Source: Firmicutes bacterium HGW-Firmicutes-14 (GTDB taxonomy: Bacteria > Bacillota > Thermincolia > Thermincolales > UBA2595). Taken from it: DNA of 36,882 bases. The translations under genes and the position numbers were made by a program. Where the stretch lies: the NCBI GenBank assembly GCA_002840275.1, contig PHAB01000028.1, positions 1 through 36,882 on the forward strand, written 5' to 3'. The notes under the pieces were generated by a model. That model made no database searches. It was given only the letters and a program-made list of their open reading frames with translations, and had not been told where the DNA came from. Below, in pieces: positions 2,238 to 31,660 of the stretch (the first letter of the stretch is position 1; every line of letters begins with the position of its first letter).

Positions 2238-4170
2238 TTAGTAGTTCTGGCAAAGCCCGGCTTCGAACTTCTCGGCGGCCTTTCTGTGGACACCGAGCTT
2301 CCATGTCCGGTATTCCAGTGCACTGAGCAGTTTTTGAGAAGCTATTTTATGATCAACTTCAAAAATGAAGTATCCGCCGTAAACGTCTCCGGCAATTTGT
2401 GTACATATGCTGTAGAAGAGGTCGCTTCCTTCAACAGGCGGCAGTACGCCAACATGGACAGGCATACCGACAGTCACACACCAGCAGCCGATGGAAACAG
2501 CCTTACCGGACATGGCTTCAGGGGCGGAGGCTACCCAAGGTACCTTCGGGGTATCCACTCCCAATTCATTTGCCATATCCATTAAGAGATCAGAACAACG
2601 GGTGTTATCAACACATGAACCCATATGGAAAATAGCCGGCAGGTCTTCTTTGGCCTTACCGTCAAACTGGGCCAGGAATGCCTTCAGGCCGTCACCGCAG
2701 AGGGAATCCCTGTTGGCCGGGTCCATCAGTCCGGCCTTGGCATGGGACTGGGCGGAGCATCCGGTAGCAATAATAAAGACATCATTCTTAAGCAATTCTT
2801 TGGCAATTTCGTTATGGTTCTCGTTCTGTTTGTTCTTCAAGTTCTCACACCCTGCCATCAGGGCTACACCTTTAATCTGACCTGAAAGAATAGCATCTGT
2901 CAGCACCTTCACAGGCTTATCAGGATTTACAGTTGCGAAAATATCATAAAACAACCTTATTCTTAACCTGGGGAATATAGACTCTCGATTTATCACGTTC
3001 TTTGAAATTGTTAATTGCTATACGAACAATCTCCTGAGCGTCTGTCATTGCAGTATCAACATTAAACGGGATGTGCATTGTGCCGGGGAGTTTAACTATA
3101 GCCTGAGTGGTAATGATCTTGGTATGGAAGCACTTGGCGGCAGTGGTCAGACCGGGCATAATGCACTGGACATCAACGACCATGGCATCAATGGCACCGG
3201 TGGTGATAGCGAGTTCCTGGGAACTAAAGGAAGTGGCTATGGGAACGCCCTGGCGCATAAGTACTTCGTTTCCTGTACAGCAGATACCGGACAGCTGAAT
3301 CCCGGCAGCTCCGGCTTCTTTGGCTTCACCTTCGAGTTCACGGGCAGCCGCTACAATCATCTCACTGAGCAGCGGGTTGTGGCCGTGAAGGATAATATTT
3401 ACCTTGTCTTTATCGATTACACCCAGGTTAGCCTCTGATACTACAGGTTCCGGAGTTCCAAAGAGAATATCTGAAAAATCGGTAGCAATATGCATACCGG
3501 TATAATCAGCCATCGCAGCCCGGAGGGCGCTGAAGGTGATGTTTACAGGGTCATTGTCCTGTCCCACGTGAGCCTGGGCCAGCAGGTCAGCCATCGCTGA
3601 CTGGATGCCGTTAGGGGTAATATTGCAGGCATCGAGTTTGGTTTTTCTGCCTTCGGTGATGGTAGAAGTACACCATACACATTCGCCCATATCAGTAAGG
3701 ATTTCAAAATCCTTAAGGGCCAGTTTAGCAAGTTCCTTGGCCAAATCTGTATCAGATTTGCCTTCTGTCACAATACCGACTTTCTGACAAACGTTATGTA
3801 GTTTCTTGGCATCGGTAATTTTATAATCAGGCGCTTTGCCTTCAGCCATTTCCAGAACGGTGTGGGCCATATGGCGCCCGTGCTCACAGTGAGCCGCACA
3901 GCCGGTTAAGAGCATAGTACCGGTACTCCTGGCAGCAATTGTCCACGCATCGGCTCCACATATTCCTTTGCTCTTAGGTCCGGTATCAGCGGTTACACGG
4001 CAGGGTCCCATCATACAAAACCGGCAGCAGGTACCCTTGTAACCGAACTGGCACTGAGGCTGTTGATCCAGTGCAGCCGGGTCAGCAGTACGCCTAACAT
4101 TCTTGGGTTCAAAAACTCTTGGTGCATCTGACGGTTTGCAGGTGTGGTTAGGGTCTTTAAATCTTGGCAT
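2238..4170 (-). pseudogene. acsA: Ni-CO dehydrogenase (CooS/AcsA), split by a frameshift
   Basis: The catalytic CODH subunit interconverts CO and CO2 at the C-cluster. The 5' piece (2944-4170, 408 codons) has the B/D-cluster Cys motif CQFGYKGTCCRFCMMGPCR, the C-cluster His (ILHGHNP) and Cys residues in GICCTGNE and DVQCIMPG, then stops at TGA 2944-2946. The 3' piece (to 2238) continues in the +1 frame with the remaining C-cluster Cys in MAGCENLK, ATGCSAQ and GSCVDNTRC, so neither piece alone can bind a full C-cluster. Compared with remembered homologues, the junction (NKVV then FYDIFATVN) lacks about seven residues of the usual GFSxEA segment. That points to a short deletion of a length not divisible by three rather than a one-base error. 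The start has a strong RBS (TTAAGGAGGTTAAAATTA). A sequencing or assembly error or programmed shift is not excluded. Confidence 0.85.
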
Positions 4171-4570: not shown

Positions 4571-5809
4571 TTATTTGTTAATTCCCATGGATCTTGCTGC
4601 TAACTCCGCCATATGAATGACTTTAATTTGAGACTCAGCCTTTAAGGCACCGCCTAACAGACCGGCATAGCATGTGGGGCAAGGAGTGGTAAGATATTCA
4701 GCCCCTGTTTCTTCGGCGTCTTTGATGCGACGGACCGATGCAGCCTCTTGCAGATCATGATTAGCGATCTTTAAGCCCCCACCAACCCCGCAACACCTTG
4801 AGAACTGCCTGACTCTCTCCATTTCAACCAGTTCCATTCCGGGAATTGCCTCAATAACATGGCGCGGGGCATCATAAATATTGTTGTGCCGCCCTAATAG
4901 GCAAGGGTCGTGGTAAGTGACTTGCCCCGGAACAGGCACCTCAAATTTGATTTGTCCCTGCCGGATCAGCATATCGAGGTACTCGGAAAGATGATATATC
5001 TTGTACTTTTGCCGGCCAACTTTGGGGTAATCACTGTAAAGGGTTTTAAAACAACCCGCACATGCAGAAACCAGTGTGTCGATACCTAAATCATTCAATT
5101 TTTCTATGTTTTTTTGGGCTAGCTGGGTAAAAGTCGGATCCCCCATCCTGCGTAATTTTCCATAACAACAGTTTTCTTCTGTTCCCAAAATCCCGAACTT
5201 AATTCCTGCCTTACTCAGGATGTTTACAGTATGTTTGGCTATCTTGTTTACTTTTTCATCAAATGTTGCCGTACACCCTATAAATAACAGGACCGAAGCC
5301 TTATTTTCAGTAATAAGCTCAGGCCGCTGCAGCAATGTTCCATCCTGAAGGCCGTCTTCTATCCAATCAGCCCTGGCAGATTGTTCTTTTTTAAAGGGAT
5401 TGCCGTATTTGACCAGGTTTTGGCAAAAGGTTCTTTGTTCAGGGATTGGCCCCAATCCTGATATAAACATGGCTGCCCGGACATTTTCCCATAACTCAAC
5501 AGTGTCTATTCTTGATGGGCAAACAAAATGACACTGGTTACAGCAAGAGCACTCATACAGACCGGTTAAGAAATCGGACATTGTATCAGGAGGAATTTCG
5601 GATTTGAACAATCCCCAAAACCCGTTCTGGGCTTTTAATATAGCTTTCAAATTCTTTATTTTTGCCCTTGGGGTAACTTTCTCGTTTTCTGTAAGACTAT
5701 ATACCGGACACCAATTCTGACATTCCCCGCACCTGGTACAGGCATCCAGACACATGAGCCGCCGGGGGCTTAACTTATCAACAGGTATGTGGCTGTTGGC
5801 ATTTTTCAT
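4571..5809 (-). CDS. HdrD/GlpC-like iron-sulfur protein with two CCG domains
   Basis: This 412-residue protein resembles the HdrD, DsrK and TmcB group of disulfide- or thiol-linked redox subunits. Two 4Fe-4S motifs are at Cys24-27-30-34 and Cys87-90-93-97. Two CCG domains follow: Cys179, Cys214-215, Cys250 and Cys253; then Cys303, Cys339-340, Cys377 and Cys380. In HdrD such domains carry the non-cubane cluster that splits disulfides. Its ATG overlaps the TGA of the cytochrome b-like gene by four bases (ATGA), so the two are translationally coupled and likely form a membrane-bound quinol/thiol oxidoreductase. The substrate is unknown; being the last gene of a selenoprotein operon suggests a low-molecular-weight or protein (seleno)sulfide partner, which is inference. 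Confidence 0.85.
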   Translation of the reverse strand: MKNANSHIPVDKLSPRRLMCLDACTRCGECQNWCPVYSLTENEKVTPRAKIKNLKAILKAQNGFWGLFKSEIPPDTMSDFLTGLYECSCCNQCHFVCPSRIDTVELWENVRAAMFISGLGPIPEQRTFCQNLVKYGNPFKKEQSARADWIEDGLQDGTLLQRPELITENKASVLLFIGCTATFDEKVNKIAKHTVNILSKAGIKFGILGTEENCCYGKLRRMGDPTFTQLAQKNIEKLNDLGIDTLVSACAGCFKTLYSDYPKVGRQKYKIYHLSEYLDMLIRQGQIKFEVPVPGQVTYHDPCLLGRHNNIYDAPRHVIEAIPGMELVEMERVRQFSRCCGVGGGLKIANHDLQEAASVRRIKDAEETGAEYLTTPCPTCYAGLLGGALKAESQIKVIHMAELAARSMGINK

Positions 5810-6591
5810 ATATATAAATCACCCCTCGTCCGTTCTTCGGAAGCATTCAGGATTATCTCTACCGGACTATTGATAACATGCATAAATTTACTGTGGGGGA
5901 AATAAGCCAGCAGAGTAGCAGTAAGGAAGGCATGCAGGGTCCAGGTTACGGATGCCGCAGCGCGGACCCACTCCCCTTCACTGAAGAAAATTCCGGACAA
6001 CCGGTACCCCACAAAGGAATATTGCAGTTCAGGCACAGGCGCGGAGAGTGAAATCCGCATGGCTTCAAGGATGAATCCGGTAAGGACTAACAATATTAGG
6101 AATATTAAAGTTGTAGTGTCATAGATGTCGGTATTCAATTGTTGCGCCCGGAATATGAACCGTCTGAGAAAGGCCGCGGCTAGGCCCAACAGCAGCATTA
6201 AACCGAAAAGGTCTCCGGCCAGCTTGTAAATGTTATGACCTTCACCATAAAGCATATATCGGGCTGTCTCTGAGCTTTCCGGGATAACTGTCTCTAAGGC
6301 CACCGCTATTGCCGATAAGGAAATCAGCCCGATAAAACCCCAAAAAATCAGCATATGAACAGACCAGCGCAAAAGGCTTCTTTGAGCTATTTGTTTTTGC
6401 CACAACACTTCCCGGAAAAACGTTTTAAACATTACTTGGAAGACAGGCCGTTGATAGAGTAACTTGCCTTTCCCACTAAAGTAAAAGGAAAACTTCAAAA
6501 CCAATCCCAATATAAAAAGTGATAAACCTATGGATTGTATTATCCAGAACAGTGTCCAGGGTTTGTAGTAGAGCGCTACACCCGAGTCCAT
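5806..6591 (-). CDS. DsrM/NarI-like cytochrome b membrane subunit
   Basis: This is a five-to-six-helix membrane protein of 261 residues, of the NarI/DsrM/HdrE kind that carries haem b and passes electrons between the quinone pool and a cytoplasmic iron-sulfur partner. Candidate haem-ligand His residues sit in WSVHMLIFWG, GEGHNIYK and LHAFLTATLLAYFPHSKFMH. I start it at the ATG at 6591 (MDSGVALYY), which has GGGGTGGTTAC directly upstream. An open frame extends about 56 codons further, but that part is basic, crosses a terminator-like hairpin and overlaps the preceding gene. It overlaps the HdrD-like gene by four bases, the classic two-subunit pair. Confidence 0.82.
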   Translation of the reverse strand: MDSGVALYYKPWTLFWIIQSIGLSLFILGLVLKFSFYFSGKGKLLYQRPVFQVMFKTFFREVLWQKQIAQRSLLRWSVHMLIFWGFIGLISLSAIAVALETVIPESSETARYMLYGEGHNIYKLAGDLFGLMLLLGLAAAFLRRFIFRAQQLNTDIYDTTTLIFLILLVLTGFILEAMRISLSAPVPELQYSFVGYRLSGIFFSEGEWVRAAASVTWTLHAFLTATLLAYFPHSKFMHVINSPVEIILNASEERTRGDLYI

Positions 6592-6665
6592 GTAACCACC
6601 CCAATTAACTTTATTTAATCCGCTTATGAACGATAACCGGTTTGAAAAAGGTGCCCGTTTTAAAA

Positions 6666-6710
6666 GGCGCCGGAGGGGTATCCCCTCCGGCCATTTCGAA
6701 AGGAGCTTTC
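6666..6710 (-). terminator. Terminator-like hairpin repeat, copy 1
   Basis: CCGGAGGGG and CCCCTCCGG (6671-6690) form a 9-bp stem with a 2-3 base loop. On the minus strand this is followed by CGCCTTTT, so it can attenuate transcription between the membrane selenoprotein gene and the cytochrome b-like gene. The flanking GGCCATTTCGAAAGGAGCT is nearly repeated at 31513-31532, so this is one copy of a dispersed element. Confidence 0.55.
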
Positions 6711-6712
6711 TT

Positions 6713-7840
6713 TTAAACGCTTTTCTTTGCTGCCTGGTAAAATTTAAGGAAAACAATAACATACATGATTGGTGCTAACATTATGCTTGCATAGTTAACA
6801 GCCGAAAGTACCTGGTTGGGAAAATAATTTCCATACACATAAACCCCCAGAACCTGGGAGCCGACAAAAGCTCAAACCATGGCCCACTGGGTTGATGAAT
6901 ACTCACTTCCATAGAAATAATCTTTGAAATAGCCGGTAAGCAAATATATGCTAAAGATGCCCCACCCGATAGCAATGACGTAAGAAAAATTGAGCAGGAA
7001 GAATGACATAACTTCTATATCAAAGTTAAAATATTTTTGCAGGTACTCCGTTACTCGTAAAAGGCTTATGCCAAACAAACAAGTAATAGGAATCATTATA
7101 AAGTAGCTGGGGAGAACAGCGTTTTGCGGCAGACTGACTGATTTCAGCTGTAAGTAGATCAGGTAACTAAGTTTAGTTACCAATAAGCAAAGACCAAAAC
7201 TCAAAGCAATCAGTGACGCAAATGCTGCTATAGATGAAATCTCCTTATTGTTCGACATGGAGGCTATTCCCGTACCGGTTAGATTAACCAGACCGAAGGC
7301 GAAGACATCAACTAACCAGACAAAGTTTAATTTAGCTGCATCAAGGGGTTGGGTTAACCAGCCCTTCAGAAACTTAAATTCAAGCATGAAAAGTGTAAAC
7401 CAGAGAAATCCAAAGAAAATTAGAGCAGGAAACATTAGATTTTGCACACTTGATGATAATTTAGGAATAAAAAATGCCAGGGGAGCCAAAATTACATTGG
7501 CAATCATAGACAGGGCGGCGATGGGAACAAAAACTCCTACACTTAATGAGGGCGGGCCGCTGATAAATTCATCATATTCACTCTTGTTGAAAAGCCATTG
7601 TATAAGGTCTTTTGAAAAAAGCACTATCGAAACCAGGCTTATAACAGTAAATATTGACATGATTCCGATTAACGGGAGATAGAGGATGGTTTGACCGGTT
7701 GTTAATCCACCCCATGGAATATCTGACAGCTTAATCAGACCTTGTCCGTGAGGCACCGCAAACTGCAGATAAGTGAAGGCCATTAAGGCGATACCCCCGG
7801 CAGCCAGGGGTACCTGGAATTTAAATGGTGTAAATTTCAT
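6713..7840 (-). CDS. Polytopic membrane selenoprotein (possibly TsoY family)
   Basis: The obvious frame stops at TGA 6872-6874 after 322 codons, in the middle of a membrane protein. The same frame stays open for 52 more codons to a TAA at 6713 and encodes another hydrophobic helix (SIMLAPIMYVIVFLKFYQ). A hairpin with a G-first loop begins 11 bases after the UGA, as in bacterial SECIS elements. I therefore read the UGA as selenocysteine 323 of 375, in the context WAMV-U-AFVG. The protein has about ten hydrophobic segments and distantly recalls SLAC1/TDT transporters. From memory, public annotation has a membrane family called TsoY (seleno)protein that this may belong to; I could not check. The start ATG has AAGGGGAAGTG, 23 bp after the dsrE-like stop. 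Function unknown. Confidence 0.8.
6844..6874 (-). promoter_or_regulatory. SECIS-like hairpin for the membrane selenoprotein UGA
   Basis: Minus strand: UGA (6874-6872), then 11 bases, then CTCCCAG-GTT-CTGGGGG (6860-6844), a 7-bp stem with one G-U pair and a three-base loop starting with G. The loop begins 19 bases after the UGA. This fits the bacterial SECIS rule of an apical loop 16-37 nt downstream with a G in its first two bases. Confidence 0.7.
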
Positions 7841-7863
7841 TAATCACTTCCCCTTTATGTAAT

Positions 7864-8214
7864 TTAAAAAGTCAGAACTTTATCAGCCTCTTCTGTCCAG
7901 TTGGCCAGTTCGATCATATTGCTTCTCTCAGTTCCGTCAATCATTTTTACTTCGCTCAGTCCCCGAGCGTCCATACAAGTCCCTCACAACCTGACTCTCC
8001 CGCCTTTGGCCAGGATTCCCCTGAGCATCCGCTCGACATTGTAAAAGCCCTGGGGGGTATTTTGGCCGGCTACCGCATTGGCAACAGCGTCAGCCATGAG
8101 AAAAATCCTGATATCGGCATCAACTTCATTTTGCATGGTCATGGCCAGTCTGCAGGCATTATAAGCCTTTTCGGTCCCATAAGGGCCGTCATTGACTATA
8201 AATAAGTACTTCAC
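7864..8214 (-). CDS. DsrE-family selenoprotein with UxxC motif
   Basis: The called frame ends at TGA 7984-7986 after 76 codons, but DsrE-fold proteins are about 115 residues. Reading through gives exactly 116 residues ending at TAA 7864. The UGA sits where the family has the first Cys of a CGTC-type motif, giving GGRVRL-U-GTC-MDARG, a UxxC. The downstream part (SEVKMIDGTERSN) and the N-terminus (MKYLFIVNDGPYGTEKAYNA) are typical of the family, which moves sulfane sulfur or acts in thiol redox. Start is GTG with GAAAGGAGGGATACT in front. It lies between the cysteine desulfurase and the membrane selenoprotein. Selenocysteine is inferred from frame, motif and SECIS-like hairpin; a simple nonsense mutation is the alternative but would not explain the fully preserved 39-codon tail. 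Confidence 0.85.
7953..7986 (-). promoter_or_regulatory. SECIS-like hairpin for the DsrE-like UGA
   Basis: Minus strand: UGA (7986-7984), 14 bases, then CGCTC-GGGGACT-GAGCG (7969-7953). The perfect 5-bp stem carries a 7-base loop that starts GG, 20 bases after the UGA. An ACTT/AAGT pair can extend the stem below a bulge. Distance and loop fit the bacterial SECIS rule. Confidence 0.75.
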
Positions 8215-8268
8215 AGTATCCCTCCTTTCGTTAGGGCATTCGGGTGAATACAGCTGGAGCCAATCTAG

Positions 8269-9408
8269 TTATTGTCCGGCGCGAAGCCGGTGGATTCGTT
8301 TAGTGATTAGTTCAGCAGCTTGCATGACATGTTCCCGCGTGGTCCCGCGCCCCAAGGAAAATCTTACGGAACCCATTCCCCTGTCCTGTTCAATGCCCAT
8401 AGCTGCCAGAACAGGGGACAGGGTTTGGGACCCATGATGGCAGGCCGAGCCTGTTGAAGCAGCAATCTCAGGGGTAACAGCCAGTAATTCCGCCGCATTT
8501 ATATCTTTGAAGCTTATATTCCAGGTATTAGGCAGCCTGTTTTCAGGATGGCCGTTAAGAGCAACACCCGTAATCCTGTCTGTCAGTAAATCGAAAAACA
8601 ACTTGCCCATCCCGGTCATCTCTGCTACACGCCGGTCCATTTCCTCTGCCGCTAATTGACACGCTTTCCCCACAGCCGCAATCCCCGCTACGTTTTCTGT
8701 TCCCGCCCGGAGGCCTCCCTCCTGACCGGCGCCGCAAATCAGGGATTCAATTTCGATGCCGGACCGGACGTAGAGAGCCCCTATACCTTTCGGTCCATAA
8801 AACTTGTGGGCCGCCAGGGTAAGCAAATCAACCTTAAGTTCATCTACCCTGGTGGGAATTTTGCCAACCGACTGCGCCGCATCTGTATGAAAACAAATGT
8901 TGTGCTCCCGGGCAATTTCCCCGATTTCGGAAAGAGGCTGGATGGTTCCCACTTCGTTATTTGCATGCATTATTGTAATAAGAATAGTATTCTTAGTTAC
9001 TGCTCTTTTTAAATCCTCCGGATTAACTGTGCCGGTATGGTCAACCGGCAAATAAGTAATTTGAAACCCCTGGTTCTCCAAACACTTACACGTATTCAAA
9101 ATTGCCGGATGCTCAATCTGAGAGGTAATGATTTGCCCTCCCCGCGCCTTGTTGGCATAGGCAATACCTTTCAGCGCCAGATTGTCGGCTTCGCTCCCGC
9201 CGCCGGTAAAAAAAATTTCCCCGGGCAGGCACCCCAGTAAATCAGCCGCCTGCTGTCTTCCCCTGTTTACAGCTTCTTTGGCTTTTACTCCGTAAGCATG
9301 GCCGCTGGAGGGATTTCCAAAGTGTTCAGTGAGATAAGGCAGCATTTCCAGTACAACTTCGGAAGCAATAGGTGTTGTTGCATTGTAGTCCAGATAAATT
9401 GGTTCCAA
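8269..9408 (-). CDS. NifS-like cysteine desulfurase (selenium-operon type)
   Basis: PLP enzyme of the class V aminotransferase fold, 379 residues, which removes sulfur (or selenium) from cysteine or selenocysteine onto an active-site Cys. Visible are the N-terminal YLDYNATTP, the PLP Lys in LAAHKFYGPKG, RAGTEN, and the catalytic Cys in STGSACHHGS. I start it at a TTG at 9408 (MEPIYLDYN) because AAAGGAGGAGG lies just before it and the family begins here; the longer open frame would add 33 atypical residues and run into selD. It is 29 bp behind selD, so it probably supplies selenide to SelD or persulfide to the DsrE-like protein. The substrate preference cannot be read from sequence. Confidence 0.92.
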   Translation of the reverse strand: MEPIYLDYNATTPIASEVVLEMLPYLTEHFGNPSSGHAYGVKAKEAVNRGRQQAADLLGCLPGEIFFTGGGSEADNLALKGIAYANKARGGQIITSQIEHPAILNTCKCLENQGFQITYLPVDHTGTVNPEDLKRAVTKNTILITIMHANNEVGTIQPLSEIGEIAREHNICFHTDAAQSVGKIPTRVDELKVDLLTLAAHKFYGPKGIGALYVRSGIEIESLICGAGQEGGLRAGTENVAGIAAVGKACQLAAEEMDRRVAEMTGMGKLFFDLLTDRITGVALNGHPENRLPNTWNISFKDINAAELLAVTPEIAASTGSACHHGSQTLSPVLAAMGIEQDRGMGSVRFSLGRGTTREHVMQAAELITKRIHRLRAGQ

Positions 9409-9437
9409 AATTCCTCCTCCTTTTAAAGGAAACTTGC

Positions 9438-10481
9438 TTATGGCAGAAGTTCTATAGTACCCGGGGGCCCTTCGATTATTTCCCCGATACATGCCGCCGC
9501 CAGACATCCTTCTTTTTTTAACGCTTCTTCCAGCTTCCCGGCTTTTTCCGGTGATACTGAAATCAGCAGACCTCCTGAAGTCTGAGAATCACACAATACC
9601 GTCCTGGTTTCGGAAGGCACCTTATCAGAATGCACCTTGCCGGCGAGATAACGGCAGTTGTTATGGGTTCCTCCCGGAACAACACCGGAGCGCACCAGGT
9701 CCCAAACTTCGTCTATGACCGGTACCGAACCGGTATATATCTTAACAGCAGCCCCACTGGCGGCCATCATTTCATAAAGATGGCCGAGAAGGCCGAAGCC
9801 ACTGACATCAGTACAGGCATTTACTCCTGTTTCCAGCATGGCTATGGCAGCCCCGCGGTTTAATTCCACCATCACCCCATAGATTTTCTCAATAAGGCCT
9901 TCTCCGGCCAAATCCCGGTCAATAGCTGTTGTTATTATCCCTGATCCCAAAGGCTTGGTGATAAATAGTTTGTCTCCCGGTTGTGCCCCTTTCTTAAATA
10001 ACAGCTTCGCCGGGTCCGCAGTCCCGGTCACCGCCATGCCATATTTGGGGGCATTGTCCTCAACAGAGTGGCCTCCGGCAATAGTAACCCCGGCTTGAGC
10101 CGCAACATCAGCGCCGCCTTTTAGAATCTCTTCTAAAATATTCAGGGGTAAACTTTTTACCGGAAAACAAACGATATTTAAAGCAAAAACCGGTTCTGCC
10201 CCCATGGCATAAATATCACTCAAAGCATTGGATGCAGCCACCGCGCCGAAAGAGTACGGGTCATTCAAAACAGGGGTGATAAAATCCACGGTCTGCACCA
10301 TGGCCAGCTTATCGCTGACACTAAATACCGTAGCGTCATCCAAACTTTCCATATAAAACCGGCTATCAGTAACTGGAGGGATGACTGTTAATATTTGCTT
10401 TAGATCCGCCGGATCTATTTTACAGGCTCAGCCTGACCCGGGTGAAAAACTGGTTAACCTTACAGAACGTTTATCAGTCAA
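9438..10481 (-). CDS. selD: Selenide, water dikinase, itself a selenoprotein
   Basis: SelD makes selenophosphate, the selenium donor for selenocysteine, from selenide and ATP. A frame opened at the first ATG (10352) lacks the N-terminus, including the catalytic residue. In the same frame upstream lies VRLTSFSPGSG-U-ACK, where UGA 10428-10430 replaces the first Cys of the family's GCGCK loop, followed by IDPADLKQIL. Starting at TTG 10481, with AGAAGG eight bases before, gives 347 residues, the usual family length. Further conserved parts are VQTVDFITPVLNDPYSFG, NALSDIYAMGAEP and TDVSGFGLLGHL. Sec at this position is well known in SelD. It is the first gene of the operon and divergent from the LysR gene. 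The TTG start is inferred. Confidence 0.93.
10401..10430 (-). promoter_or_regulatory. SECIS-like hairpin for the selD UGA
   Basis: Minus strand: UGA (10430-10428), 10 bases, then TAGATCC-GGC-GGATCTA (10417-10401). This is a perfect 7-bp stem with a three-base loop starting GG, 18 bases after the UGA. Confidence 0.78.
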
Positions 10482-10516: not shown

Positions 10517-10546
10517 TTTACATCGTAACACATAAAATGCTATAAT
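10517..10546 (+). promoter_or_regulatory. Promoter of the LysR regulator gene
   Basis: TTTACA (10517-10522), 18 bp, TATAAT (10541-10546). Transcription would start near 10553, about 100 nt before the gene. The -10 box is the first part of a 40-bp motif repeated at 31620. Confidence 0.6.
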
Positions 10547-10580
10547 GGAAATGCATAATCGTCATATGAGTTATGAGTAT
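10541..10580. promoter_or_regulatory. Candidate LysR-type operator, copy 1
   Basis: The segment around GAAATGCATAAT in the selD-LysR divergent region recurs at 31620-31660 with about 29 of 40 identical positions (TATAATkGAAATGCATAAT, then related AT-rich half-sites). Divergent placement next to a LysR gene is the usual site for an autoregulatory operator. Binding is inference. Confidence 0.35.
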
Positions 10581-10655: not shown

Positions 10656-11540
10656 ATGGAATTAACCCAGCTTAGAGCTTTTTATGAAATCGCCAGGTCA
10701 GGCAGCTTCAGCAAAGGCGCTGAGAAACTTAACATTACCCAGCCGGCTCTTTCCCGCCAAATTGAATCCCTGGAAAAATCAGTGGGGATAAGCCTGTTCA
10801 ACAGGCACAGCCGGGGTGTTTACCTAACTGAAGCAGGCCGCAGGCTGATCGAATATGTTGAGCAGATACTGAGGCTGGCAGATGAGGCAGATAGAACGCT
10901 TCAGGAAATTCAGGGGCTGGAGACAGGCACACTGAAAATTGGGGCATGTACTACCGTGGGAAACTATTTACTGCCCACGCCACTTGCTGCGTTTCTGAAA
11001 CTGCATCCCAACATTGAGGCTTCCCTGGAACTGGGCAGCAGTGACGAAATCGCTGAGAGGGTTATGAACAGGCATTTTGACCTGGCCTTTATCGCCGGTA
11101 TTGCTGACCCGCCGGGGCTGTGCATTGAATCAATACATGAGGATCAGATTTTGTTCTTGGTCTATCCTGACCACCCCTTGTGCAAAACGACAGATTTTCA
11201 ACCGGAACTGCTGGCTGATGAGGTTTTTATCCTCCGGGAACTGGGTTCCGCAACCAGAAAAGCATTAGAATTAATCCTTGAAAGTGTTCAGATTAAACCC
11301 CGTAAGGTGGTGACACTTGGGGATACCGAGGCTGTTAAAAGAGCAGTCATGGCTGGAATGGGTATTACTTTTCTGTCAAAATACACCGTGGGTTTGGAAC
11401 TGCAGGCCGGCCTTTTATGTGCCCCCAATTTTCCCGAGTTGATGCTGAGCCGGAGGTTGCTGTGTATTTACCCCAAGGGAGTACACCTGTCCCCGGCAGC
11501 CCTCGCTTTTTTGTCCCATCTGAAAAAAGCGAATCATTAA
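10656..11540 (+). CDS. LysR-family regulator divergent from selD
   Basis: A 294-residue LysR-type transcriptional regulator. The N-terminal winged helix-turn-helix is plain (MELTQLRAFYEIARSGSFSK, then ITQPALSRQIESLE), followed by a CysB/CbbR-like effector domain. ATG has TAGGGTGGTG upstream. It is divergent from the selD operon with a 174-bp shared regulatory region, which suggests that it controls selenium genes. From memory, public family models include a selenium metabolism-associated LysR regulator; this may be one. It ends in a shared TTAA with the convergent gerC gene, with no terminator in between. Effector unknown; a selenium or sulfur metabolite is a guess. Confidence 0.9.
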   Translation: MELTQLRAFYEIARSGSFSKGAEKLNITQPALSRQIESLEKSVGISLFNRHSRGVYLTEAGRRLIEYVEQILRLADEADRTLQEIQGLETGTLKIGACTTVGNYLLPTPLAAFLKLHPNIEASLELGSSDEIAERVMNRHFDLAFIAGIADPPGLCIESIHEDQILFLVYPDHPLCKTTDFQPELLADEVFILRELGSATRKALELILESVQIKPRKVVTLGDTEAVKRAVMAGMGITFLSKYTVGLELQAGLLCAPNFPELMLSRRLLCIYPKGVHLSPAALAFLSHLKKANH

Positions 11541-16332: not shown

Positions 16333-17091
16333 TTACCCGGCTGACCTTTGGCTGATTTTTTTCTCCAGAACTGATACCAATTGACCAAATTCATTCAATT
16401 CCTTTTCTGCCTGGTCTGCACGAACTTTTTCCTTCATCAGCTGTTCTTTAAGCTCATTGTTAACTTTAGAAAATTCCCCCAGATCCTCAATCTTCCCATT
16501 AAAGGCTGCCAGGCCGTCCTTGATTTCCATTATAACTGTTTCCAGGTTAATATCTGCTTTCTCAATCCTTTCTGCCTCAAGCTGATGCTCCAGCTCAGCC
16601 CGGAGATGCTGTTGTTCTGCCAGCTGACGATTGGCTTCGTCGAGTTGTTCTTGTATTTCAGCTATCCTTGAATCATCATCAATTGACAATTTTCCCTCAA
16701 TCTCATTAGACTTTTCTTTATTTTCAAGTTCCTTTTTTAGATTAAGCAATTCACTTCTTAATTTTTCGATTTCGGTCTGGAGTCCAGCTTTTTCCTCCTC
16801 CAGCCGTTGGTTAACTTTGTGCAAATTGTTATATCTTTTTTCTAAATCCTTAATTTGACATTCCATTTCAAATTTTAATTTTTCTTTGGAATTGGTAAGG
16901 TCTTCTATACACTTCTTAAAGCTTTCCTCAGATGTTTTTACCCGCTGCCGGATACCGGATATATAATTAGTAACTTCGTTTTCGTCAAAACCCCCGATTG
17001 TCTTTCTCTTAAAATTGTAATCCGGTAGTTCTGCAGCCTTGTTTCGCAGAGAATTGAAATGATCCGTTGGAACCGGTGTCTTTTCTTCCAC
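16333..17091 (-). CDS. DivIVA-like coiled-coil protein under c-di-GMP riboswitch control
   Basis: A 252-residue, mostly alpha-helical protein. Residues about 20-45 (FKRKTIGGFDENEVTNYIS) look like the short N-terminal domain of DivIVA/GpsB proteins, which sense membrane curvature or organise cell-pole and division machinery. From about residue 60 to the end there are continuous Glu/Lys/Leu heptads without breaks. I start it at GTG 17091, ten bases after AAAGGAGG; an upstream ATG would sit before the RBS. The 5' leader carries a c-di-GMP-I riboswitch with its own terminator, so the gene is likely tied to c-di-GMP signalling in motility, surface attachment or sporulation. The family link to DivIVA is weak by eye. 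Confidence 0.7.
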   Translation of the reverse strand: MEEKTPVPTDHFNSLRNKAAELPDYNFKRKTIGGFDENEVTNYISGIRQRVKTSEESFKKCIEDLTNSKEKLKFEMECQIKDLEKRYNNLHKVNQRLEEEKAGLQTEIEKLRSELLNLKKELENKEKSNEIEGKLSIDDDSRIAEIQEQLDEANRQLAEQQHLRAELEHQLEAERIEKADINLETVIMEIKDGLAAFNGKIEDLGEFSKVNNELKEQLMKEKVRADQAEKELNEFGQLVSVLEKKISQRSAG

Positions 17092-17137
17092 CCTTAATAA
17101 ACCTCCTTTAGAAAATAAAATAACCACTGGCCGGGAT

Positions 17138-17192
17138 AAAAACCGTCTATGGCTATTAATCTAAAGAAGATTTCGGTAACTGGCTGCCATAG
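17138..17192 (-). terminator. Riboswitch expression platform (terminator)
   Basis: CTATGGC inside the aptamer's 3' side (17192-17186) can pair with GCCATAG (17153-17147), with an inner AATCT/AGATT hairpin, followed by ACGGTTTTT. Pairing uses bases of the ATGGCAGCC part of the aptamer, so ligand binding would disfavour the terminator. This predicts an ON switch. Confidence 0.6.
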
Positions 17193-17247
17193 TATAATCC
17201 ACAGGCCCTTTAGTTTTGCGTCCCAGCTTTTCAACTGGTTTGCCTTT
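17174..17247 (-). promoter_or_regulatory. c-di-GMP-I (GEMM-I) riboswitch aptamer
   Basis: Read on the minus strand, the segment contains the hallmarks of the GEMM-I aptamer in order: AAAGGCAAACC, a GAAA-type loop (GTTGAAAAGC), GGGACGCAAA, GGGCCT, and ATGGCAGCCAGTTACCG. It lies in the leader of the coiled-coil gene, about 80 nt before its start. The match is to the family consensus as I remember it. Confidence 0.9.
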
Positions 17248-17278
17248 ATCAATATATGAAGTTTTTAGTTTTAATTTA

Positions 17279-30243: not shown

Positions 30244-31419
30244 TTAGTCTAAAGCTTGGGCCAGATCTTCAATAATGTCCTCGGCTTCTTCTATGCCCAC
30301 TGAAACCCGAACTAATTTATCTGAAATCCCACCTCGCAGCCGAAGTTCACGAGGAACATTGTAGTGAACGGCAGCTACAGGCTGGGTAATTAAAGACTCC
30401 ACTGAGCCAAGACTTACAGCCCGGGTAAATAGCTTTACCCTGTTAAGAATATGGTTCACCTGTTTCACGTCTCCTTTGAGCTCAAAGCTAAGAACACCCC
30501 CAAATGCGCTCATTTGTTCTTTGGCCAGGCTGTGCTGGGGATGGCTGGGTAACCCGGGGTAATATACATTTTCGACCAGCGAATGGTTATCTAAAAATTC
30601 TGCCACTGCCTGGGCATTTTCATTATGCCGTTTCATCCTTAACCCAAATGTCTTTAATCCTCTAAGCAGGAGCCAGGCATCAAAGCCGTTAAGATTTCCG
30701 CCCATCTTGCGGAAAATATTAATACATATATCAATATAATCCGCCTCGCCAAGGATAGCACCCGCCATAATGTCACTATGACCGTTTAAGTATTTTGTAC
30801 AGCTGTGCACAACGACATCTGCCCCTAAATCCAACGGTTTTTGGTTAAAAGGAGTAGCAAATGTATTATCAATAATAAGCTTGATACCACTTTCATGGGC
30901 AAAACCGGCAATCTTTTTGATATCGTATATTCTTAAGGTTGGATTACTGGGAGTTTCCAGGAAGATAACCCTGGTATTTTTTCTAACAGCGGATTCAAGC
31001 TGAGAAAAGTCTCCGGGGTCCACAAAAGTTGTAGTAATTCCCAACCTCGGAAAAACATCATCAAATAAGCCAAAGCTCCCACCGTAAATATCCGGGTGGC
31101 TGATTATATGTTCTCCTGATTTGACTATAGCCATAATGGCAACAGAAGTGGCTGCCATTCCTGAACTCAGCACAAGTCCTTTTTCGGCCCCTTCCAAGAA
31201 CGCCAGTTTTTCTTCCACCATAGTGTAATTGGGATTTCCGTACCTTGTGTAAATATATCCCTCTGCCCGCCCCTCCATCAAATCCAACATACCTTCGTTA
31301 GTTTCGAAAGCAAAGGTAGTAGTCTGGTAAATAGGCGGTATTACTGAACCGGTGACAGGGTCAGGTCTTTCACCAACATGAACAAGGTTACTGTTGATAC
31401 CTCTAAACCTCTTCTTCAT
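30244..31419 (-). CDS. Trans-sulfuration PLP enzyme (cystathionine/methionine lyase type)
   Basis: A 391-residue Cys/Met-metabolism PLP enzyme that makes or breaks C-S bonds of sulfur amino acids. Visible are YTRYGNPNYTMVEEKLAFLE, GLVLSSGMAATS, the phosphate-contact YGGSFGLFDD, and the PLP Lys in VHSCTKYLNGHSD. The residue equivalent to the active-site Cys of classical methionine gamma-lyase appears to be Gly (IYGGSF). The family mixes gamma-synthases, gamma- and beta-lyases and methionine gamma-lyases, which I cannot separate by eye. The start has a weak RBS (AAAAGGGGTGCAAG). Some of these enzymes also act on selenium analogues. It stands alone behind a terminator-like repeat. Confidence 0.88.
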   Translation of the reverse strand: MKKRFRGINSNLVHVGERPDPVTGSVIPPIYQTTTFAFETNEGMLDLMEGRAEGYIYTRYGNPNYTMVEEKLAFLEGAEKGLVLSSGMAATSVAIMAIVKSGEHIISHPDIYGGSFGLFDDVFPRLGITTTFVDPGDFSQLESAVRKNTRVIFLETPSNPTLRIYDIKKIAGFAHESGIKLIIDNTFATPFNQKPLDLGADVVVHSCTKYLNGHSDIMAGAILGEADYIDICINIFRKMGGNLNGFDAWLLLRGLKTFGLRMKRHNENAQAVAEFLDNHSLVENVYYPGLPSHPQHSLAKEQMSAFGGVLSFELKGDVKQVNHILNRVKLFTRAVSLGSVESLITQPVAAVHYNVPRELRLRGGISDKLVRVSVGIEEAEDIIEDLAQALD

Positions 31420-31489: not shown

Positions 31490-31539
31490 TGGGGCCGGAG
31501 GGAAATTTCCCTTTGGCCATATTGAAAGGAGCTGTTCCC
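31490..31539 (-). terminator. Terminator-like hairpin repeat, copy 2
   Basis: GGCCGGAGGGAAATTTCCCTTTGGCC-type imperfect hairpin (31493-31517) that on the minus strand is followed by CCATTTTTTTT. The hairpin and the adjoining CATATTGAAAGGAGCT closely match copy 1 at 6666-6710. It lies upstream of the trans-sulfuration gene and in the same orientation relative to the window. Confidence 0.5.
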
Positions 31540-31619: not shown

Positions 31620-31660
31620 TATAATTGAAATGCATAATTATTATATAAAGTATAATCTAT
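31620..31660. promoter_or_regulatory. Candidate LysR-type operator, copy 2
   Basis: TATAATTGAAATGCATAAT followed by an AT-rich half-site repeats the motif of the selD/LysR region. It lies about 200 bp upstream of the trans-sulfuration gene on its far side and 205 bp before a small plus-strand ORF. It may link that enzyme to the LysR regulon; AT-rich similarity by chance is possible. Confidence 0.3.

What the first reader, a model, noticed from the sequence alone, without database searches (positions are those of the whole stretch)
4571..10481. A six-gene selenium-linked redox operon: SelD, NifS-like, Sec-DsrE, Sec-membrane protein, cytochrome b, HdrD-like
Seen: six minus-strand genes with short gaps or overlaps, three with in-frame UGA plus hairpin. 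Known: SelD makes selenophosphate, NifS-like enzymes mobilise S/Se, DsrE proteins shuttle sulfane sulfur, and HdrD/NarI-like pairs exchange electrons between membrane and thiols. Inference: the operon encodes a membrane system that handles a selenium or sulfur species with selenocysteine as the active group, regulated by the divergent LysR protein. A hairpin between genes 4 and 5 may reduce expression of the redox pair.
Basis: partly seen in the sequence, partly recalled or inferred. Interest (0 to 1): 0.87.

Follow-up and report, generated by a model that had tools for sequence, protein, structure and literature searches.

The report
A second, dedicated selenophosphate-synthetase operon
This bacterium carries, besides its ordinary selenium-activating enzyme, a second anciently separate version of it in its own regulated gene set with a sulfur/selenium carrier, a selenium-containing membrane protein and an electron-transfer pair, which suggests a selenium- or sulfur-handling branch that I could not find described.

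Summary
Six minus-strand genes lie at 4571-10481; three have an in-frame UGA followed by a SECIS-like hairpin, and homologues keep UGA (or Cys) there. The parts are known: Sec-SelD, a NifS-class desulfurase, a YchN-type DsrE selenoprotein, TsoY (NF047643, 555 bits, cut-off 250), a NarI-like cytochrome b and an HdrD-like protein.

What was missed matters more. The genome has another Sec-SelD beside selA. The window's SelD belongs to a separate, fully supported clade ("SelD2", 100/100). All 14 sampled SelD2 genomes also carry an ordinary SelD; 15 genomes without SelD2 have only one. SelD2 lies beside or near a LysR gene, usually with DsrE or CGGC, NifS and TsoY. A 17-bp footprint between lysR and selD2 recurs upstream of tsoY in three relatives and of a methionine-gamma-lyase-like gene in this window.

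The cytochrome b/HdrD pair is a family-restricted accessory: four related genomes have it here, and paralogues sit in methyltransferase clusters. In two distant SelD2 operons a sulfide:quinone-reductase-like protein occurs instead.

Best reading: a second-SelD regulon that handles reduced selenium (perhaps also sulfur) and connects to membrane redox. Biochemistry is inferred. The paper that named TsoY was not available to me.

The parts
10656..11540 (+). Divergent LysR-type regulator, sister to the selenium-metabolism LysR subfamily
   Evidence: NF040786 226 bits (cut-off 250), best NCBIfam match; 8 of 10 LysR proteins at other SelD2 loci also match it best at 193-245 bits, two have no match at E<=1e-55
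10541..10557 (-). Conserved 17-bp footprint TATGCATTTCCATTATA between lysR and selD2, probable LysR site; overlaps the predicted -10 of lysR (10517-10546 +)
   Evidence: Exact in seven genomes in the lysR-selD2 interval, 2-3 mismatches in five more; promoter match 11 of 12
9438..10481 (-). SelD2: second, Sec-containing selenophosphate synthetase; UGA at 10428-10430
   Evidence: TIGR00476 359.5 bits, cut-off 125; separate clade 100/100; other SelD at C15 beside selA
10401..10417 (-). SECIS-like hairpin of selD2
   Evidence: Same position in SelD2 homologues with paired changes
8269..9408 (-). NifS/IscS-class cysteine desulfurase (possible selenocysteine lyase)
   Evidence: PF00266 241 bits; TIGR03402 458.8 bits, below its 530.75 cut-off
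7864..8214 (-). YchN-type DsrE selenoprotein, 116 aa; UGA at 7984-7986 (U77, UxxC)
   Evidence: PF02635 87 bits; nearest solved relative YchN 1jx7, E 1e-28, Sec aligned to a YchN Cys; Sec or Cys in homologues
7953..7969 (-). SECIS-like hairpin of the DsrE gene
6713..7840 (-). TsoY: membrane selenoprotein related to the SLAC1 channel family; UGA at 6872-6874 (U323)
   Evidence: NF047643 555 bits, cut-off 250; PF03595 SLAC1 29.6 bits, cut-off 27.9; Sec invariant in the Sec-type homologues
6842..6862 (-). SECIS-like hairpin of tsoY
6669..6691 (-). 10-bp perfect GC-rich hairpin between tsoY and the cytochrome b gene, specific to this genome
   Evidence: z -3.9; absent in three relatives; its flank recurs at 31515-31532
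5806..6591 (-). NarI/QmoC-like cytochrome b membrane subunit, accessory
   Evidence: PF02665 47 bits; His79, 220, 238 invariant in 11 homologues and paralogues
4571..5809 (-). HdrD-like protein: two 4Fe-4S motifs and two complete CCG domains, accessory
   Evidence: PF02754 and Fer4 families; both CX(n)CCX(n)CXXC motifs complete; nearest solved relative 9ojn iron-sulfur-binding reductase
31620..31636 (-). Second copy of the footprint, TATGCATTTCAATTATA
30244..31419 (-). Methionine-gamma-lyase-like PLP enzyme about 200 bp downstream of the second footprint; probable regulon member
   Evidence: TIGR01328 440 bits, below its 549.7 cut-off; 68% identical to a gene inside the SelD2 operon of G368

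Best explanation
The region is the selD2 regulon: a dedicated second selenophosphate synthetase with its own selenium-type LysR regulator. The desulfurase probably mobilises selenium (or sulfur) from selenocysteine or cysteine. The small Sec-containing DsrE/YchN protein probably carries or reduces it as a selenylsulfide or persulfide. SelD2 turns selenide into selenophosphate. TsoY, a SLAC1-type membrane protein with Sec near its C-terminal end, probably moves or senses a small chalcogen anion. In this family a cytochrome b/HdrD-like pair exchanges electrons between the quinone pool and a thiol or selenol substrate; in two distant SelD2 operons a sulfide:quinone-reductase-like flavoprotein sits in a comparable position. 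It would be a selenium-handling branch parallel to the housekeeping SelD/SelA supply, switched on by LysR together with a methionine-gamma-lyase-like enzyme. SHOWN from sequence: gene order, Sec codons, the SelD2 clade, co-occurrence with a second SelD, the footprint. INFERRED: every biochemical step, the substrate, the direction of flow and actual binding by LysR.
For: Own genome has two Sec-SelDs, the other directly beside selA. The linked SelDs form one clade, 100/100, which held when 12 SelD loci found by similarity alone were added; the three that joined it (G284, G054, G299) all sit divergent to a LysR gene, one with DsrE and NifS, one with CGGC nearby. All 14 sampled SelD2 genomes have a further SelD, while 15 genomes without SelD2 have exactly one. 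SelD2 keeps the UxxK catalytic motif and has diagnostic residues (I68, K163, D188 against F, N, K). TsoY and SelD2 co-occur: Fisher p 1e-10 over 398 genomes, 9e-5 with one genome per genus outside the own family. DsrE or CGGC lies near TsoY in most loci with enough flank. The footprint recurs exactly 105 bp before tsoY in three genomes and before the gamma-lyase-like gene here; the reversed control pattern gives 3 hits in 11 genomes against 19. SelD2-DsrE operons of G368 and G233 carry an SQR-like flavoprotein.
Against: No expression, binding or enzyme data. SelD2 could simply be a conditionally expressed SelD that feeds ordinary Sec synthesis. Sec-DsrE also occurs without TsoY or SelD2 nearby (G191, G212), and TsoY occurs without linked SelD2 (G003, G105, G381, L011), so the parts are separable. 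LysR adjacency is not exclusive to the clade (G097, G131). The TsoY structure model failed (mean pLDDT 41), so transport rests on a marginal Pfam hit. The footprint at the gamma-lyase gene has an orphan counterpart in G007 without that gene.
Confidence: 0.5

Rival explanations
1. Conditional duplicate: SelD2 and the desulfurase merely raise selenophosphate supply when the operon's own selenoproteins (TsoY, DsrE) are made; the pathway itself is a sulfur or thiol redox system in which selenium is only the catalytic residue.
For: The operon encodes three selenoproteins; catalytic motif of SelD2 intact; DsrE, HdrD-like and SQR-like proteins are sulfur-type; the gamma-lyase-like gene points to sulfur amino acids.
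Against: SelD2 also occurs with Cys-type DsrE and no TsoY in the operon (G368, G233, G284), where no selenoprotein other than SelD2 itself was seen.
Confidence: 0.3
2. Selenium detoxification: the regulon answers excess selenite or selenide, with TsoY exporting a selenium or sulfur anion and SelD2, DsrE and the quinone-linked partner removing reactive selenide.
For: SLAC1 families include sulfite and tellurite-resistance transporters (established knowledge); the CGGC partner also sits next to YeeE/YedE-type transporters in G001; an SQR-like partner in G368 and G233; Sec in TsoY would restrict it to selenium-replete cells.
Against: Direction of transport unknown; no induction data; marginal Pfam score.
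Confidence: 0.25
3. The last two genes (cytochrome b/HdrD) are an independent electron-transfer unit that happens to follow tsoY.
For: Paralogues 61-68% identical next to CobW-like and corrinoid-methyltransferase genes, also in the own genome; a strong hairpin separates the genes here; absent from TsoY loci outside the family.
Against: tsoY-cytB-hdrD order kept in four genomes of two genera, with 48-53 bp gaps and no hairpin in three of them, even where other genes were inserted upstream.
Confidence: 0.3

Closest known systems
selD-SclA-YedF-YedE-DUF3343-LysR_Se selenium gene clusters (Lin et al. 2015, PMC5322559)
   Same: SelD, class-V desulfurase/Sec lyase, a DsrE-domain protein, a roughly ten-helix membrane protein and a selenium-type LysR
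   Different: SelD is the SelD2 paralogue; the DsrE protein is YchN-type with Sec, not YedF (18.7 bits, cut-off 110); TsoY replaces YedE; G012 has both a YedF cluster and a SelD2 locus
TsoY selenoprotein / Tso neighbourhood (Haft and Tolstoy 2025, cited in PMC13188914)
   Same: The 375-aa protein is TsoY by curated model
   Different: No TsoA/B/C seen in the genes examined; the SelD2 link is not mentioned in the review passages I could read; the primary paper was not held
DsrE-like selenoprotein (UxxC) listed in reviews PMC9312934 and PMC13188914
   Same: PF02635 with UxxC
   Different: Placed here in a SelD2 operon; nearest solved relative YchN
DsrMK, HdrDE, Qmo and EtfD-type membrane oxidoreductases
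   Same: NarI-like cytochrome b plus CCG-domain iron-sulfur protein
   Different: Far below the DsrM, DsrK and QmoC cut-offs; nearest solved relative is a fused iron-sulfur-binding reductase 9ojn
Type III sulfide:quinone reductase, selenoprotein subtype (NF049943)
   Same: Best match of the flavoprotein in the SelD2 operons of G368 and G233
   Different: Not in the window; scores 228 and 140 bits against a cut-off of 525

Membership tests
SelD (selenide, water dikinase) | Curated model score and Sec/Cys plus Lys active-site motif | tested here: met
   359.5 bits v 125; UxxK present
SelD2 clade (proposed) | Groups with linked SelDs apart from the selA-linked SelD | tested here: met
   100/100 in two trees
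TsoY selenoprotein | NF047643 above cut-off with Sec in the conserved C-terminal motif | tested here: met
   555 v 250 bits; motif invariant
Tso three-selenoprotein operon | TsoA, TsoB and TsoC nearby | tested here: inconclusive
   None recognised among the genes examined; the whole genome was not searched for them
DsrE-like selenoprotein | PF02635 with UxxC | tested here: met
TusD / YedF | Curated model cut-off | tested here: not met
   34.6 v 89 and 18.7 v 110 bits
LysR_Sec_metab (LysR_Se) | NF040786 cut-off | tested here: not met
   226 v 250 bits, best match, so a near relative
NifS (nitrogenase type) | TIGR03402 cut-off | tested here: not met
   459 v 531 bits; class-V desulfurase by Pfam
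Selenocysteine lyase | Sec preferred over Cys as substrate | not testable with these tools
   SclA model 107 v 525 bits; needs an assay
DsrMKJOP complex | DsrM and DsrK model cut-offs | tested here: not met
   17.5 v 300 and 78 v 400 bits
HdrD / CCG-type disulfide reductase | Two complete CCG motifs | tested here: met
   C179/214/215/250/253 and C303/339/340/377/380; activity untested
SLAC1/TehA channel | Pfam gathering score and channel fold | tested here: inconclusive
   29.6 v 27.9 bits; structure model unusable; no PDB relative by sequence

The most novel reading that the evidence does not exclude
SelD2 defines a separate selenium-utilisation branch in Sec-using Firmicutes: its selenophosphate, or a selenide relay through Sec-DsrE, goes to a membrane chalcogen pathway (TsoY with an SQR- or HdrD-type quinone link) rather than to Sec-tRNA, under its own LysR regulon.
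Probability: 0.22. Interest if true: 0.85.

Novelty: new variant of a known kind. Interest (0 to 1): 0.62.

Why it matters
SelD is the marker of every known SelD-dependent selenium-utilisation trait, and most genomes examined here have one copy. A conserved second SelD that is accompanied by an ordinary one and comes with its own regulator, carrier and membrane partners would point to selenium chemistry beyond selenocysteine, selenouridine and the molybdenum-hydroxylase cofactor, or to a dedicated way of buffering reactive selenide. It gives TsoY and the DsrE-like selenoprotein, both without known function, a common context and a testable regulatory site.

Tried and rejected
(1) Structure of TsoY from five sequences: mean pLDDT 41, not searched; no PDB relative by sequence. 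(2) SECIS by folding energy alone: z -0.7 to -1.2, not convincing; comparative evidence used instead. (3) A DsrMK / dissimilatory sulfite pathway: DsrM and DsrK models far below cut-off; two NIR_SIR hits in 324- and 247-aa frames of the own genome were judged too short for DsrA/DsrB and not followed further. (4) The cytochrome b/HdrD pair as a defining part: rejected because of its narrow distribution and its paralogues elsewhere. (5) LysR adjacency as a hallmark of the clade alone: rejected, G097 and G131 have it outside SelD2. (6) Off-locus footprint matches with one mismatch mostly lie in or near unrelated genes and were not used. (7) Literature: no report of a second bacterial SelD clade in the papers held; the key paper PMC12013261 is not held. 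(8) Rfam found nothing in this operon.
Full report
OBSERVATION. The six minus-strand genes exist as described. SelD (9438-10481), the 116-aa DsrE protein (7864-8214) and the 375-aa membrane protein (6713-7840) each have one in-frame UGA followed by a hairpin. The single hairpins are not remarkable against shuffled sequence, but the comparative evidence is strong: the UGA lies in the same conserved motif in every sampled Sec-type TsoY, DsrE homologues have UGA or Cys there, and the hairpins keep their position with paired changes (read by eye, no formal count). The genome encodes SelB.

IDENTITY. Gene 1 is SelD (TIGR00476). Gene 2 is a class-V cysteine desulfurase of the NifS/IscS type. Gene 3 is a DsrE-family protein whose nearest solved relative is E. 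coli YchN (1jx7), with the Sec aligned to a YchN cysteine. Gene 4 is the known selenoprotein TsoY (NF047643, 555 bits against a cut-off of 250) with a marginal SLAC1 match. Gene 5 is a NarI-like cytochrome b with three invariant histidines. Gene 6 is an HdrD-like protein with two 4Fe-4S motifs and two complete CCG motifs. The divergent LysR matches the selenium-metabolism LysR model best but stays under its cut-off (226 v 250). TsoY and the DsrE-like selenoprotein are listed in a recent review (PMC13188914), so none of the single parts is new.

NEIGHBOURHOODS. TsoY was found in 6 of 10 genomes of the class and in 13 of 398 sampled genomes of the phylum above cut-off, 12 of these with UGA. Gene orders: G006 LysR / SelD-NifS-DsrE-Lpd-TsoY-CytB-HdrD; G005 the same without NifS; a Thermincola MAG (L008, G007) SelD-DsrE-GcvH-LipS1-LipS2-LplA-Lpd-citrate synthase-TsoY-CytB-HdrD; G055 LysR / SelD-TsoY-DsrE; G087 LysR / SelD-DsrE(Cys)-TsoY-NifS; G158 LysR / SelD-TsoY; G117 LysR / DsrE-NifS-TsoY with SelD a few kb away; G105 NifS-ArsR-TsoY-DsrE; G381 ArsR-TsoY-CGGC-NifS; L011 (a deltaproteobacterial MAG) NifS-TsoY-CGGC; G003 NapH-like-CGGC-TsoY with a LysR; Desulfosporosinus SelD-CGGC-TsoY fragment. 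A small thiol/Sec protein (DsrE or CGGC, PF08821) is the commonest partner. The cytochrome b/HdrD pair occurs only in the own genome and G005-G007. Paralogous pairs lie beside CobW-like and corrinoid-methyltransferase genes in the same family and order, and one lies in the own genome.

A SECOND SelD. The own genome holds another Sec-SelD at C15:219296-220216, directly beside selA. The window-type SelDs form one clade with 100/100 support. To test this without circularity I searched 398 genomes by SelD similarity alone and rebuilt the tree: the clade holds 15 rows, again 100/100, and the three new ones all sit divergent to a LysR gene, one followed by DsrE and NifS, one with CGGC nearby. Each of the 14 sampled SelD2 genomes has at least one further SelD; 15 genomes without SelD2 have exactly one. 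The one clade member without a second SelD is a Desulfosporosinus MAG. SelD2 keeps the catalytic motif but differs from other SelDs at I68, K163 and D188. TsoY and SelD2 co-occur far beyond chance even with one genome per genus outside the own family (p 9e-5). G012 carries three: SelD beside selA, a Cys-SelD in a desulfurase-YedF-DUF3343 cluster, and SelD2 beside LysR.

REGULATION. The lysR-selD2 interval contains TATGCATTTCYATTATA, exact in seven genomes and recognisable in five more. It overlaps the predicted -10 of lysR, as in autoregulated LysR systems. A search of 11 genomes returned 19 matches with at most one mismatch against 3 for the reversed control. Seven exact matches come from the intervals that defined the pattern. 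The other exact ones are three at exactly 105 bp before tsoY in G005, G006 and G007, where other genes separate tsoY from dsrE; one at window 31620-31636, about 200 bp before a methionine-gamma-lyase-like gene (30244-31419); and one orphan in G007. That gene is 68% identical to one inside the SelD2-NifS-DsrE-SQR operon of G368, which supports the link independently. The G007 orphan lies in the same region after the germination genes but has no such gene after it, so this inference is moderate.

MECHANISM. Shown: order, codons, clade, co-occurrence, footprint. Inferred: the desulfurase releases Se or S; Sec-DsrE carries or reduces it; SelD2 makes selenophosphate; TsoY moves or senses a small anion; a quinone-linked unit (HdrD/cytochrome b here, an SQR-like protein in G368 and G233) balances electrons. 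The set resembles the selD-SclA-YedF-YedE-LysR_Se clusters (PMC5322559) with the accessory parts exchanged. Rivals: SelD2 as a conditional supplier for a sulfur redox system; selenium detoxification; an independent last gene pair.

HAIRPIN. The GC-rich hairpin 6669-6691 is the strongest fold of the operon (z -3.9) but is specific to this genome; three relatives have 48-53 bp gaps without it. A related hairpin with the same flank precedes the gamma-lyase-like gene and lies near the orphan site in G007. An attenuation role is possible and untested.

LIMITS. No expression or biochemical data. The TsoY model failed. The paper that named TsoY could not be read, so part of this may already be described there. 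Sampling is from one phylum; the deltaproteobacterial locus shows TsoY reaches further. Points that rest on my own knowledge: SLAC1 families include sulfite and tellurite-resistance transporters; LysR regulators commonly bind between themselves and a divergent target; 9ojn-type iron-sulfur-binding reductases resemble EtfD.

Noticed in passing
L008 3907-9856 (Thermincola MAG), also L027, L028: GcvH, LipS1, LipS2, a lipoate ligase, dihydrolipoyl dehydrogenase and citrate synthase genes lie between the Sec-DsrE and TsoY genes; in G005 and G006 only the dihydrolipoyl dehydrogenase. This recalls lipoate-dependent sulfur systems that also carry DsrE.
   Followed up: partly
G000:C57 (L088), L089-L095: Cytochrome b/HdrD paralogue pairs beside CobW-like GTPase, MtaA/UroD-like methyltransferase, corrinoid protein and TauABC-like transporter genes: an uncharacterised methyltransferase cluster with its own membrane electron-transfer unit.
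   Followed up: partly
window 2238-4170: The carbon-monoxide-dehydrogenase-like gene upstream of the acetyl-CoA-synthase-like gene reads as two overlapping frames (2944-4170 and 2238-2996): a frameshift or an assembly error.
   Followed up: no
window 17171-17253: c-di-GMP-I-GGC riboswitch (Rfam RF03167, 65 bits) upstream of a coiled-coil protein gene at 16333-17127.
   Followed up: no
window 6689-6706 and 31515-31532: The same 18-bp flank GCTCCTTTCNAWATGGCC with a GC-rich hairpin precedes the cytochrome b gene and the gamma-lyase-like gene; 0 of 100 shuffles give two matches. A similar copy is in G007 (L217).
   Followed up: partly
L091 6369-8000 (G001): A CGGC-domain gene stands next to two YeeE/YedE-type transporter genes, mirroring CGGC beside TsoY elsewhere.
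   Followed up: no
L182 and L181 (G097): Two SelDs outside the SelD2 clade in one genome, one beside a LysR gene and a TauE/SafE-like permease, one beside a NifS-like gene: possibly an independent duplication.
   Followed up: no
L102 (G025) 8102-8392: A UGA-containing DsrE homologue distant from the window type (about 43% identical), context unrelated.
   Followed up: no
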